The translations under genes and the position numbers were made by a program. Below the pieces are notes generated by a model, which was given only the letters and a program-made list of their open reading frames with translations, was not told the DNA's origin and did not search any database. 37,905 nt of DNA, from positions 1 through 37,905 of the forward strand of contig JAGONZ010000001.1 in the NCBI GenBank assembly GCA_017992755.1, given 5' to 3'. This DNA comes from Candidatus Buchananbacteria bacterium. GTDB taxonomy: Bacteria > Patescibacteriota > Patescibacteriia > 2-01-FULL-39-33. The stretch's first letter is position 1. Each line of letters opens with the position of its first letter. Positions 11,986 through 19,103 of the stretch are shown in pieces.

Positions 11986-12166
11986 AAACAAAAACTCCCG
12001 TCACAAATACATATCAAAGATACATACTTGGGACGAGAGCCAATCTCCCGCGGTTCCACCCAGTTTTCCCGCCGTTGGCGGGACACTCTTTCGACAACTT
12101 AGTGCCAGTTGGCAACCCTCCGCCAGCTGGCGGAGAGGTAAGCGGTTGGTGGCCGCTTCAATCGTT
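11986..12166 (-). promoter_or_regulatory. Threonine T-box riboswitch (ultrashort stem I)
   Basis: Read on the minus strand, TGGGTGGAACCGCGG (about 12049-12063) is the T-box consensus, with the tRNA-end-binding bulge TGGA. Near the 5' end, AGCGG/CCGCT (12153-12157 with 12141-12145) forms a 5-bp hairpin whose 7-nt loop contains ACC, a Thr codon, followed by A. Two further GC-rich hairpins lie between. An antiterminator can form with ACTGGG/CCCAAGT around the bulge and GCGGGAG/CTCTCGT above it. The competing terminator pairs 12032-12039 with 11995-12002 and is followed by a T run (11986-11994). Uncharged tRNA-Thr should stabilise the antiterminator and switch on thrS-SET-ddl. Confidence 0.9.
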
Positions 12167-12172
12167 ACCTGT

Positions 12173-15357: not shown

Positions 15358-15386
15358 TTGACTGTCAGCTCCAGACGATATACACT
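15358..15386 (+). promoter_or_regulatory. Promoter of the ileS operon
   Basis: TTGACT (15358-15363), 17 bases, TACACT (15381-15386). The transcript would start near 15393, just before the T-box specifier hairpin. Confidence 0.7.
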
Positions 15387-15392
15387 ATCTTT

Positions 15393-15550
15393 AAAGCAAT
15401 AATCTCAGCTATCACTGGGAGCGCTGTCGGAAGAAATGCGCCTAGCGCACGTAGACCCGGCCGGTTGGACCGTAATCTCCAGTAATTAAGTATTCGCCCA
15501 AGATGGTACCGCCCGCGAGGGCTCTTGGCCGCCCTATTAGGGGCGGTTTT
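15393..15550 (+). promoter_or_regulatory. Isoleucine T-box riboswitch (ultrashort stem I)
   Basis: A 6-bp hairpin, TCTCAG/CTGGGA (15403-15408 with 15415-15420, one wobble), carries the loop CTATCA with ATC, an Ile codon, followed by A. Downstream, CCAAGA (15498-15503), the bulge TGGTACC (15504-15510), GCCC-GCGA-GGGC (15511-15522) and TCTTGG (15523-15528) form a textbook T-box antiterminator. Bulge TGGT would pair with a tRNA ending A-CCA. A terminator follows: CCGCCC/GGGCGG (15529-15534 with 15541-15546) plus TTTTATTTATTTT. ACCGCC within the T-box could also pair with the same GGGCGG, which would give the exclusive switch. Intermediate hairpins lie at 15440-15475. Confidence 0.88.
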
Positions 15551-15559
15551 ATTTATTTT

Positions 15560-16135
15560 ATGAGTTTAGCGCCAATAAATGAAGTTGATGATGAGTGGTT
15601 GCTGGCCGGTATTAGATTTGTGATATCTTTTATAGCGGCGCAATTTCTGGGTGTGGCGGTTGTCGCTATGATTCTCCCGATATTAATGTTTGATGTCACG
15701 CTGGCGCATGATCATATATTTGGATCCCTCATAAGCTTTGGAGGGATCATCAATGCCTGGAATCCGGAGGGGGACTCTATTGATTCAGGCGATGTTATGT
15801 ATATGTTTTCAATTCTCTCCCTTATATTTTTTGCTGGGGTGAGTGCAATCACTTGGGGTATTAAGATGCTGTTCAAAAATCAACCCAAATTTACCACCAA
15901 AGCTAGGTTTTTGAACGCGGCAATTGTAACAGCCATAATTTACGGTTTAGGTTTTCTGGCAATTGCCTATGATCAGAAAGATTTTGAAGGATTTATCTTG
16001 ATTCTACTGCTCTTTTACGCCATAAGTATGGGGTTACTATCTATCTACTACGGCTTAAGTTATATAAAAGATAATTTAATTCTCATTAAACAAACCATCT
16101 TCGATAAAATCTCAAAAGCATATGAAATCAAATAA
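15560..16135 (+). CDS. Four-helix membrane protein cotranscribed with ileS
   Basis: The 191-residue protein has about four strongly hydrophobic segments (near 17-45, 78-100, 120-140 and 146-170) and a short charged tail, with no motif I recognise. The ATG at 15560 directly follows the T-box terminator run; the upstream extension would be read from the riboswitch and is rejected. Its end overlaps the ileS start by 14 nt, so the two are translationally coupled and both should respond to isoleucine charging. A role in uptake of an amino acid or peptide is conceivable from that control, but nothing in the sequence shows it. Confidence 0.75.
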   Translation: MSLAPINEVDDEWLLAGIRFVISFIAAQFLGVAVVAMILPILMFDVTLAHDHIFGSLISFGGIINAWNPEGDSIDSGDVMYMFSILSLIFFAGVSAITWGIKMLFKNQPKFTTKARFLNAAIVTAIIYGLGFLAIAYDQKDFEGFILILLLFYAISMGLLSIYYGLSYIKDNLILIKQTIFDKISKAYEIK

Positions 16136-19103
16136 TCCAACACAGTCAAAAAAACACCCACTCGTTCTCGCCGAAGAAGAAACTCAGAAGCAGTGGCAGG
16201 CCAAACAAATATTTGAAAAGAGCGTAGCGAAAGATGCGCCAAAAGGCGATTACGTGTTTTATGATGGCCCACCATTTGCGACGGGCATGCCGCATTATGG
16301 TCACCTACTGCCGGGTATTATGAAAGATGTGATGCCTCGCTATCAGACGATGCGCGGGTATCGCGTGGAACGGCGCTGGGGTTGGGATTGCCATGGGTTG
16401 CCAATTGAAAATATTGTTGAAAAAGAACTCGGCTTTAAACACAAAAAAGAAATCGAGGAATTTGGTGTGGCCAAATTCAATGAGCTCTGCCGGAGTAAAG
16501 TCTTAGGCTACGTCGAAGAATGGAAAACCGCCATGGGCCGCTTTGGGCGCTGGGCTGATATGGACAACGCCTACACCACGATGAGTCGGGAGTATATGGA
16601 AAGTGTGTGGTGGGTGTTTAAATCACTCTGGGACAAAGACTTGATCTATGAAGGCTACAAATCAATGCATATCTGTCCGCGCTGCGAGACGACGTTGTCG
16701 CAGCAGGAGGTAAGCGAAGGGTATAAAACGATTAAAGATTGGTCAGTGACGGTTAAGCTCGAACTGGTTGATGAACCAGGAACATTCTTACTGGCCTGGA
16801 CTACTACGCCGTGGACATTACCAGCCAATGTTGCACTTGCTGTTAGTAAAACGGCAGAATATTCGTTATGGGAAGTAAAGAAGATGACACTTGATAATTA
16901 TGAGATTATTGATGAAAAGATAGAAAAATATATATTATCGACAGACGCGGCTTTAAAGCTATTTGGATTAGATGATCTTAAGCCTATTACTCGAGGAGGT
17001 CCTGGGCCAAATGATGAACAAATCGCATACAATATTCTTGAAAGGTTTAACGGGTCTGAAATCATTGGGCAATCTTATAAGCCTTTATTTGATTATTATC
17101 CCGACTTAAAAGATATTTGGAATAAAGATATTACAGATATTGGTACAGGCAGAAAGGTTTATGGAGCAGAGTTTGTAACCAACAATGAAGGTACAGGCAT
17201 AGTTCATATTGCCCCTGCATTTGGTGAGAATGACTATCAATTAGGATTAAAAGAAGGTTTGCCATTTGTTCAGAATGTGGGTATGGATGGGAAATATGAT
17301 CAAACAGTCACCGATTTTGCAGGGATGTCAGTGAAGCCAATCGATGATCACATGGCGACCGATGTTGAGATCATCAAGTACTTAGCCAAGCGAAATTTAT
17401 TATTCGCCAAAGAAAAAATCGAACACAGTTATCCGCACTGTTGGCGCTGTGATACGCCCTTGCTTAACTACGCGACGAGCTCGTGGTTTGTGGCGGTGAC
17501 GAAAATCAAAAATGATTTACTGTCAAACGCGAAGCAGATTAACTGGTTCCCGGAGCACATTAAAGAAGGCCGCTTTGGTAAGTGGCTCGAAGGCGCGCGT
17601 GATTGGTCGATTTCGCGCCAGCGTTTTTGGGCATCGGTCATGCCGGTTTGGAAATGTTCGTGCGGTGAAACCAAGGTGTTTGGTTCAGTGGCCGAGTTAG
17701 AAGCGGCCAGTAATCAGCAAATTAATGATTTGCACAAACACATCGTGGATGAAATTACGATCCAATGTGAAAAATGCGGTGAAACGATGCACCGAATTCC
17801 AGATGTCCTCGACACCTGGTTCGACAGCGGCTCGATGCCGTACGCGCAATTACAGTATCCGTTTACCAATGAAGACAAATTGGCTGAGCGCTTCCCAGCA
17901 GATTTCATTGCCGAAGGTCAGGACCAAACCCGGGCTTGGTTTTATTATCTACATGTACTGGCTGGCGCTTTGAAAGGCTCAGTGGCATTCAAGCAGGTGA
18001 TTGTTAACGGGATTGTACTGGCTGAAGATGGCAAGAAAATGTCCAAAAAGCTCCAGAATTATCCGCCGCTTGATACAGTCTTGGATCAATATGGTGCTGA
18101 TGCGTTGCGGTATTATTTGGTGACCTCGCCAGGGGTGGCGGCTGAGAATTTAAGCTTCTCAGAAAAAGGGGTCAAGGAAGTATTCCAAAAAGTCGTCATG
18201 CTAACAAGCAACGTCGTCAGTTTTTATGAAATGTATAAAACTGAAACCGTTGGCCTGACACCGAGCGAGCACATTCTCGATCGCTGGATTATTGCCAAGC
18301 TCAATGTATTGATTAGCGACGTCGAAACGAGCATGGCTAGCTATGATTTAGCGCGCGCTTCCCGACCAATCCAAGAATTTATTGATGAGCTCTCAACGTG
18401 GTGGTTGCGTCGTTCACGTGATCGCTTTAAAGGTGCTGACAAAATGCCAGCGCTAACGACCTTGCGCCAAGTATTACTTGAACTGTCAAAAGTAATGGCG
18501 CCGTTTACGCCGTTTATGGCTGAGCGCGTGTATGCAGCGGCTTCAGGTGAATTAGAATCAGTGCATCTTGATGCCTGGCCGGTCGCGCAACCAGTTGACC
18601 GCGAAGTAATTGAGCGAATGGATCGCGTGCGTGAAATTGTTGAATTATCTTTGGCTAAGCGCGCCGAGACCGGAATTAAAATTCGCCAACCGCTTTCTGA
18701 ATTGGCAGTAACTGGCCCCAAAGTCACCGAACTCCAAGGTGAGCTCGCGCAGATTATTATGGATGAACTAAATGTAAAAAATGTCACCTTCGCTGATAAT
18801 GAAACATTAGCTGTTGCGCTTAATACTGAACTAACTCCTGAATTACAGCGCGAAGGGTTATTGCGTGAACTCATCCGCAGTGTTAACGATCTCCGCAAAA
18901 AGATGGGCCTGACAATTCAAGATCGAGTGGTGATTAGCTGGCAGAGTGACAGTGTTGTCATTCAAGAAATGTTGGCTGATGACACCTTACTCAATGAATT
19001 ATTAGACTCAACATTAGCTGACGAATATCGCCAAGCCGAAACCGAAGGCGAAGTCTTAAAGTTGAATGGCGAGCAAATAACGATTGCGATTGTAAAAAAA
19101 TAA
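16122..19103 (+). CDS. ileS: Isoleucyl-tRNA synthetase, type 2 (eukaryote-like)
   Basis: This 993-residue class I synthetase charges tRNA-Ile. FYDGPPFATGMPHYGHLLPG holds the HIGH signature as HYGH, the form seen in eukaryote-like type 2 enzymes. The CP1 editing domain spans about residues 200-410, with AWTTTPWTLPANVALA and GTGIVHIAPAFGENDY. Next come HCWRCDTPL, DWSISRQRFW, a zinc-ribbon segment (CSCGETK, CEKCGET), DTWFDSGSMPY, and KMSKKLQNYP as KMSKS. The anticodon-binding and C-terminal domains follow. The bases at about 16861-17280 are markedly AT-richer than the rest of the gene, which suggests a mosaic editing domain. The gene is under an upstream T-box and overlaps the membrane-protein gene. 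Confidence 0.97.
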   Translation: MKSNNPTQSKKHPLVLAEEETQKQWQAKQIFEKSVAKDAPKGDYVFYDGPPFATGMPHYGHLLPGIMKDVMPRYQTMRGYRVERRWGWDCHGLPIENIVEKELGFKHKKEIEEFGVAKFNELCRSKVLGYVEEWKTAMGRFGRWADMDNAYTTMSREYMESVWWVFKSLWDKDLIYEGYKSMHICPRCETTLSQQEVSEGYKTIKDWSVTVKLELVDEPGTFLLAWTTTPWTLPANVALAVSKTAEYSLWEVKKMTLDNYEIIDEKIEKYILSTDAALKLFGLDDLKPITRGGPGPNDEQIAYNILERFNGSEIIGQSYKPLFDYYPDLKDIWNKDITDIGTGRKVYGAEFVTNNEGTGIVHIAPAFGENDYQLGLKEGLPFVQNVGMDGKYDQTVTDFAGMSVKPIDDHMATDVEIIKYLAKRNLLFAKEKIEHSYPHCWRCDTPLLNYATSSWFVAVTKIKNDLLSNAKQINWFPEHIKEGRFGKWLEGARDWSISRQRFWASVMPVWKCSCGETKVFGSVAELEAASNQQINDLHKHIVDEITIQCEKCGETMHRIPDVLDTWFDSGSMPYAQLQYPFTNEDKLAERFPADFIAEGQDQTRAWFYYLHVLAGALKGSVAFKQVIVNGIVLAEDGKKMSKKLQNYPPLDTVLDQYGADALRYYLVTSPGVAAENLSFSEKGVKEVFQKVVMLTSNVVSFYEMYKTETVGLTPSEHILDRWIIAKLNVLISDVETSMASYDLARASRPIQEFIDELSTWWLRRSRDRFKGADKMPALTTLRQVLLELSKVMAPFTPFMAERVYAAASGELESVHLDAWPVAQPVDREVIERMDRVREIVELSLAKRAETGIKIRQPLSELAVTGPKVTELQGELAQIIMDELNVKNVTFADNETLAVALNTELTPELQREGLLRELIRSVNDLRKKMGLTIQDRVVISWQSDSVVIQEMLADDTLLNELLDSTLADEYRQAETEGEVLKLNGEQITIAIVKK

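What the first reader, a model, noticed from the sequence alone, without database searches (positions are those of the whole stretch)
15393..15550. Isoleucine T-box with the same ultrashort architecture ahead of a membrane gene and ileS
A second leader in the same window has ATC in the loop of a 6-bp hairpin and a perfect antiterminator around TGGTACC with a GCGA tetraloop. Two independent operons with the same reduced stem I suggest a lineage-wide compact T-box class. The terminator lies directly after, not overlapping, the antiterminator, so the switch may use an alternative pairing of ACCGCC (15508-15513) with 15542-15547.
Basis: partly seen in the sequence, partly recalled or inferred. Interest (0 to 1): 0.7.

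Follow-up and report, generated by a model that had tools for sequence, protein, structure and literature searches.

The report
Compact isoleucine T-box in Patescibacteria
This stretch of leader RNA very probably senses whether the cell's isoleucine tRNA is loaded and switches the isoleucyl-tRNA synthetase gene on when it is not; it belongs to a compact T-box design, known so far mainly from Actinobacteria, that turns out to be widespread in the tiny Patescibacteria and is often joined there to transcription terminators in layouts that the textbook switching model does not explain.

Summary
Window 15402-15559 holds an isoleucine T-box. The specifier AUC sits in the 6-nt apical loop of a 6-bp Stem I, followed by an S-turn Stem II, a IIA/B pseudoknot, a UGGU T-box antiterminator (AT) and an intrinsic terminator. 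A 4-TM orphan ORF comes next and overlaps ileS. Rfam's T-box model misses this leader. A covariance model built here finds relatives in 69/380 genomes of the class and 133/379 of the phylum sample (Patescibacteria; named hits include Ca. Buchananbacteria). All 17 tested pairs covary. The specifier tracks the gene: ileS AUC, valS GUC, aspS GAC or AAC, thrS ACC. The UGGN base fits the tRNA discriminators checked. Architecturally this is the known class III T-box, here coupled to terminators rather than to Shine-Dalgarno sequestration. In 30 of these the terminator lies directly 3' of the AT, with gap exactly 0 in 28; in 29 the AT is nested inside it. How uncharged tRNA blocks an abutting terminator is inferred, not shown. 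New variant of a known kind.

The parts
15358..15386 (+). promoter-like site TTGACT-17-TACACT just upstream of the leader (weak evidence alone)
   Evidence: 5 such sites in the region, 2.5 expected by shuffling
15403..15420 (+). Stem I: 6-bp hairpin, 6-nt apical loop CUAUCA
   Evidence: register confirmed in homologues
15411..15413 (+). specifier AUC (Ile), followed by the conserved A15414
   Evidence: codon-gene tracking
15426..15461 (+). Stem II: lower helix 15426-30/15457-61, S-turn strands AAGAA (15431-35) and GUAGA (15451-55), upper helix 15437-41/15445-49
   Evidence: lower helix: all 5 pairs covary, 98.3% paired over 97 sequences
15462..15480 (+). Stem IIA/B pseudoknot: IIA 15462-64/15470-72, IIB 15467-69/15478-80
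   Evidence: IIA 99.7%, IIB 86.7% paired with compensatory changes; IIB was not in the model
15481..15497 (+). 17-nt linker AGUAAUUAAGUAUUCGC with no evident Stem III
15498..15528 (+). antiterminator: A1 15498-503/15523-528, T-box bulge UGGUACC 15504-510, A2 15511-514/15519-522, GCGA loop; terminal A2 pair is G-C
   Evidence: A1 covaries, 96.5% paired; A2 pair types
15527..15559 (+). intrinsic terminator 15529-35/15540-46 (two further G-U pairs possible into A1) and U-tract from 15547
15560..16135 (+). 191-aa orphan ORF, 4 predicted TM segments; its end overlaps the start of ileS by 14 nt
   Evidence: no Pfam hit; only one weak match, E 0.002, among the relatives searched
16122..19103 (+). ileS, isoleucyl-tRNA synthetase (993 aa)
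   Evidence: PF00133 1.9e-133; TIGR00392 848 bits
12026..12170 (-). second T-box, thrS leader: specifier ACC in apical loop CCACCAA, UGGA, Stem III, canonical terminator
   Evidence: (RF00230 42.1 bits, below the gathering score of 93)

Best explanation
The region 15402-15559 is a transcription-attenuating T-box riboswitch of class III architecture (ultrashort Stem I) that reads tRNA-Ile. Its AUC specifier pairs with anticodon GAU, Stem II and the IIA/B pseudoknot clamp the codon-anticodon helix, and the UGGU bulge pairs with the ACCA end of uncharged tRNA-Ile. Uncharged tRNA stabilises the antiterminator and allows read-through into the membrane ORF and ileS; charged tRNA does not. Shown by sequence and comparison: fold, covariation, specifier and discriminator matches, terminator, gene order. 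Inferred: the direction of control. Inferred and less certain (about 0.45): because the terminator starts at the base immediately after helix A1 and its lowest pairs can only form by taking A1's outermost nucleotides, a tRNA-locked A1 keeps the terminator stem from closing against the U-tract (junction competition plus steric blocking), rather than by the classical sharing of a whole strand.
For: R1 covariance model: hits in 69/380 class and 133/379 phylum genomes. All 17 pairs have compensatory changes, 96% of cells paired versus at most 44% when slid; the IIB pseudoknot was not modelled yet covaries. Specifier tracks gene. UGGN base: ileS U 52/56, valS U 32/35, thrS A 8/8, aspS C 12/18 and U 6/18, against tRNA discriminators A73 in Ile-GAU of relative G003, A73 in Val and U73 in Thr-GGU of this genome. 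Terminator available with the AT formed: 11.9 kcal/mol in the window. AT-compatible downstream terminators in 30 leaders of at least 13 families, gap 0 in 28 (shuffles 24%), potential overlap of 2 nt in 21.
Against: Thermodynamically the AT and the terminator coexist in the window (MFE), so nothing in base pairing alone makes them exclusive. No Stem III is evident, whereas without Stem III the AT alone did not bind tRNA appreciably in the work reviewed in PMC7583486, and the A2 terminal pair is G-C instead of the G-U wobble described there as the aminoacylation sensor. tRNA-Ile(GAU) was not found among the tRNAs examined in this 87%-complete draft (only Ile-UAU). No expression data exist.
Confidence: 0.8

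Rival explanations
1. T-box with the first reader's switch: with no uncharged tRNA, ACCGCCC of the T-box/A2 5' strand (15508-14) pairs with GGGCGGU (15541-47), competing with the AT.
For: The pairing is perfect over 7 bp in the window and a closely related pairing appears as a suboptimal fold (-23.9 versus -26.9 kcal/mol). In sister leaders (G002, G003, G009, G015, G024) the terminator 3' arm does pair with the AT 5' strand including part of the T-box bulge.
Against: The local hairpin 15529-46 uses the same GGGCGG and is more stable, so the pairing would not relieve termination; the pairing is not enriched in 30 abutting leaders.
Confidence: 0.15
2. Ile-responsive T-box whose aptamer is intact but whose expression platform has decayed in this lineage: the terminator acts constitutively as a leaky attenuator, or the T-box acts on mRNA stability or translation.
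For: AT and terminator are thermodynamically compatible; the window's family otherwise mostly shows 5'-strand-exclusive platforms; an orphan ORF is inserted before ileS.
Against: The abutting geometry recurs in 13 families with gap exactly 0 in 28/30, which decay would not produce; no Shine-Dalgarno-like sequence is evident between terminator and ATG for a translational switch.
Confidence: 0.25
3. A geometric version: the tRNA bridging Stem I and the AT leaves no room for a helix stacked on the free end of A1, so the abutting (or nested) terminator is excluded by the shape of the whole complex rather than by 1-3 shared nucleotides.
For: Explains both AT-compatible layouts, abutting (30) and nested (29), with one principle; T-box-tRNA complexes are held together by end-to-end helix stacking (PMC7583486, PMC10482949).
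Against: No structure of such a platform exists; not testable here.
Confidence: 0.3
4. Chance assembly of motifs, not a T-box.
For: Rfam gives no hit for this leader; its fold energy is like that of shuffles; UGGNACCNC occurs 8 times in the window.
Against: Covariation across 97 homologues, specifier tracking and discriminator tracking.
Confidence: 0.01

Closest known systems
Class III (ultrashort Stem I) translational ileS T-boxes of Actinobacteria, e.g. Nocardia farcinica and Mycobacterium tuberculosis (PMC10482949, PMC7583486, PMC1262725)
   Same: Short Stem I with the specifier in an apical loop of about 6 nt, S-turn Stem II, IIA/B pseudoknot, UGGU-type discriminator, ileS target
   Different: Intrinsic terminators instead of Shine-Dalgarno sequestration; also Val and Asp/Asn specificities; a different phylum; no evident Stem III in the window; A2 terminal pair mostly G-C
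Class I transcriptional T-boxes of Firmicutes (Rfam RF00230)
   Same: Stem II, pseudoknot, T-box bulge and antiterminator, transcription attenuation; the long leaders found by RF00230 in the same phylum mostly show the mutually exclusive platform
   Different: No long Stem I or tRNA-elbow contact (IDTM); in the window the terminator does not use the 3' strand of the AT

Membership tests
T-box riboswitch (superfamily) | specifier codon matching the amino acid of the downstream gene | tested here: met
   AUC before ileS; tracking over ileS/valS/aspS
T-box riboswitch (superfamily) | 7-nt UGGNACC bulge between helices A1 and A2, N matching the tRNA discriminator | tested here: met
   UGGUACC at 15504-10; N tracks the gene; A73 in Ile-GAU of relative G003
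T-box riboswitch (superfamily), canonical transcriptional platform | antiterminator and terminator mutually exclusive by sharing a strand | tested here: not met
   Terminator keeps 11.9 kcal/mol with the AT enforced; only up to 2 nt can be shared. This lowers the claim of a canonical platform, not of T-box identity: translational T-boxes have other platforms.
T-box riboswitch (superfamily) | binds tRNA and responds to its charging | not testable with these tools
   needs biochemistry
Rfam family RF00230 | match above the gathering score | tested here: not met
   no match of this leader even at E<=10
Class III T-box | short Stem I without IDTM, specifier in a penta- or hexanucleotide apical loop | tested here: met
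   6 bp, 6-nt loop; fixed register in 54 ileS leaders
Class III T-box | Stem II with S-turn | tested here: met
   AAGAA/GUAGA; flanking helix covaries
Class III T-box | IIA/B pseudoknot | tested here: met
   IIB covaries although not modelled
Class III T-box | Stem III flanked by a purine string | tested here: inconclusive
   17-nt linker with no evident hairpin; AAUUAAG could be the purine string
Class III T-box | G-U wobble as terminal pair of A2 | tested here: not met
   G15511-C15522; G-C is the commonest type in the R1 set, 74 leaders versus 23 G-U
Class III T-box | regulates translation initiation (stated as 'mostly' in PMC10482949) | tested here: not met
   intrinsic terminator, no evident Shine-Dalgarno sequence

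The most novel reading that the evidence does not exclude
Patescibacteria evolved transcriptional class III T-boxes in which the antiterminator does not exclude the terminator by sharing a strand. The tRNA-bound discriminator blocks a terminator that abuts it or encloses it, so the tRNA works as a direct steric gate on termination.
Probability: 0.4. Interest if true: 0.8.

Novelty: new variant of a known kind. Interest (0 to 1): 0.6.

Why it matters
Reviews state that transcriptional T-boxes generally need a long Stem I to catch tRNA before RNA polymerase reaches the terminator (PMC7583486, section 6.2). A phylum full of ultrashort-Stem-I T-boxes followed by terminators makes that rule directly testable. 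It also gives Patescibacteria, for which the searched open-access library showed no T-box report, a widespread candidate amino-acid starvation sensor for synthetase genes, and it explains why Rfam-based censuses would miss it.

Tried and rejected
Rfam at gathering score and at E<=10: thrS leader only. Duplex-only terminator classification undercounted local hairpins and was replaced by constrained folding with the AT enforced; one search was a first, unconstrained version. The idea that the 191-aa ORF is a conserved partner of ileS: not found in sister genomes. Pattern search for tRNA-Ile(GAU) in the draft genome: no convincing tRNA among the matches. Automatic Stem I picking failed for about a third of ileS leaders and all thrS leaders, so codon tracking was also tested by an anchored register scan.

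Full report
CHECK OF THE OBSERVATION. The sequence contains what was described. TCTCAG-CTATCA-CTGGGA at 15403-15420 is a 6-bp hairpin with ATC (15411-13) in its loop. CCAAGA-TGGTACC-GCCC-GCGA-GGGC-TCTTGG at 15498-15528 is a complete antiterminator. CCGCCCT-ATTA-GGGGCGG-TTTTATTTATTTT begins at the very next base. Both hairpins are in the minimum-energy fold. The fold energy is ordinary (z 0.21), so the case rests on comparison. Rfam finds only the second leader of the window, ahead of thrS (42.1 bits against a gathering score of 93).

RELATIVES. ileS-upstream regions from 95 related genomes gave seven further leaders with the same order of parts. A DNA pattern search in named genomes hit Candidatus Buchananbacteria, Magasanikbacteria and unnamed Patescibacteria, ahead of ileS, aspS and valS. 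A covariance model built from seven ileS leaders, without Stem I pairs, found matches in 69 of 380 genomes of the class and 133 of 379 of the phylum sample at E<=0.01. The window leader is one of the seven seeds, so its own score is not independent. On 97 aligned matches every one of 17 tested pairs has changes on both sides; 96% of cells pair, against at most 44% when the partners are slid; and the IIB pseudoknot pairs, which the model did not contain, are 87% paired.

SPECIFIER AND DISCRIMINATOR. Downstream genes were grouped by BLAST and representatives named with NCBIfam. In 54 of 56 ileS leaders AUC plus a purine lies just 5' of the S-turn, and complementarity around it peaks sharply at loops of 6 and 7 nt. 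In a cross-table of best hairpins, ileS loops carry 36 Ile and 0 Val codons of 55, valS loops 28 Val and 0 Ile of 31, and aspS loops 13 of 15 GAC or AAC. The unresolved rest are mostly cases where the automatic picker chose another hairpin. The variable base of UGGN also follows the gene: U before ileS (52/56) and valS (32/35), A before thrS (8/8), C (12/18) or U (6/18) before aspS. This fits A73 of tRNA-Ile(GAU) in the complete relative G003 and A73 of tRNA-Val, U73 of tRNA-Thr(GGU) and G73 of tRNA-Asn and -Asp in this genome. tRNA-Ile(GAU) itself was not found among the tRNAs examined in this 87%-complete draft.

EXPRESSION PLATFORM. For each leader I enforced the complete antiterminator (with the T-box bulge blocked) and asked how much terminator stability remains. 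Of 141 leaders with a U-tract, 67 lose it (mutually exclusive), 15 have no strong terminator by this measure, and 59 keep at least 4 kcal/mol, against 24 on average when linker and downstream segment are shuffled (38 versus 7 at 6 kcal/mol). All 8 thrS leaders, an internal control with the canonical layout, are exclusive. The 59 fall into two layouts. In 30 the terminator lies 3' of the antiterminator; the gap is exactly 0 in 28 and the stem could borrow exactly 2 nt of helix A1 in 21; hairpins in shuffles have gap 0 in only 24%. These come from at least 13 families, 6 of them outside the class, and they include the window. In 29 the terminator's 3' arm pairs with the linker 5' of the antiterminator, so the antiterminator is nested in the terminator. 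A further layout, in sister leaders G002, G003, G009, G015 and G024, pairs the 3' arm with the antiterminator's 5' strand including part of the T-box bulge; canonical T-boxes use the 3' strand (PMC7583486).

HOW IT MOST LIKELY WORKS. Shown: the parts, their conservation, the match of specifier and UGGN to the gene, and the predicted terminator. Inferred from the T-box family: uncharged tRNA-Ile stabilises the antiterminator and allows read-through to the ORF and ileS, which overlap by 14 nt. Inferred with less confidence: because antiterminator and terminator share at most 2 nt, exclusion must come from competition at the junction and/or the bulk and stacking of the tRNA-bound helix directly against the terminator stem. 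The alternative that the platform has decayed is weakened by the recurrence of the zero gap.

COMPARISON WITH KNOWN SYSTEMS. Architecturally it is class III (PMC10482949: short Stem I, specifier in an apical penta- or hexaloop, Stem II required), known from Actinobacterial ileS leaders that sequester the Shine-Dalgarno box (PMC1262725). Differences tested: terminators instead of sequestration; Val and Asp/Asn specificities as well; no evident Stem III in the window; terminal A2 pair G-C rather than the G-U wobble described as the aminoacylation sensor (G-C 74, G-U 23 in the R1 set). A review describes a long Stem I as generally required for transcriptional T-boxes (PMC7583486), so this group is an exception. 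TBDB looked for short T-boxes in the Actinobacteria and among class I hits with a truncated Stem I (PMC7778990). I found no report of T-boxes in Patescibacteria in the searched open-access library, which does not hold most subscription papers.

LIMITS. All energetics are ViennaRNA models of short segments at 37 C; no kinetics were computed. Leaders are related, so counts of leaders are not counts of origins. The AT detector required at least 4 bp of A1 and missed some real leaders (for example G004, which has a bulged A1). The classification by family uses the anonymous family codes of the genome collection. That terminators in these genomes terminate transcription is assumed from sequence.

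Noticed in passing
window 12026-12170 (-): thrS leader: T-box with ACC in the apical loop CCACCAA, UGGA matching U73 of tRNA-Thr(GGU), no S-turn Stem II found, Stem III present, canonical terminator using the AT 3' strand.
   Followed up: partly
L178, L177, L192, L207, L217, L251 versus L011, L181, L194, L210, L249, L269: T-boxes ahead of aspS use either the Asn codon AAC or the Asp codon GAC, suggesting that some sense tRNA-Asn (indirect Asn-tRNA synthesis through a non-discriminating AspRS).
   Followed up: no
L123 (7083 down to 6778, -), L032 (4531 down to 4154, -), L153 (1692-2036): Other leaders also have a small unrelated ORF between T-box and synthetase or right after the T-box: a membrane-like ORF before valS (L123) and ORFs that look like four-helix-bundle/S23-type proteins (L032, L153; resemblance judged by eye only).
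   Followed up: no
L280 1500-1573 (-); L327 1594-1667 (-): A tRNA-Ile with anticodon UAU is predicted in this genome and in relative G003.
   Followed up: no
L265; L233; L223 and L224: T-boxes of this type ahead of genes other than synthetases: an aminotransferase (loop CTGACAA), a 93-aa acidic protein (Ile-type loop), and an ORF resembling a carbohydrate kinase (Val-type loop CTGTCA), possibly first genes of operons.
   Followed up: no
Patescibacterial leaders of the R1 set: The terminal pair of helix A2, a G-U wobble described as the amino-acid sensor in canonical T-boxes, is mostly G-C here (74 versus 23 G-U), so aminoacylation sensing may differ.
   Followed up: partly
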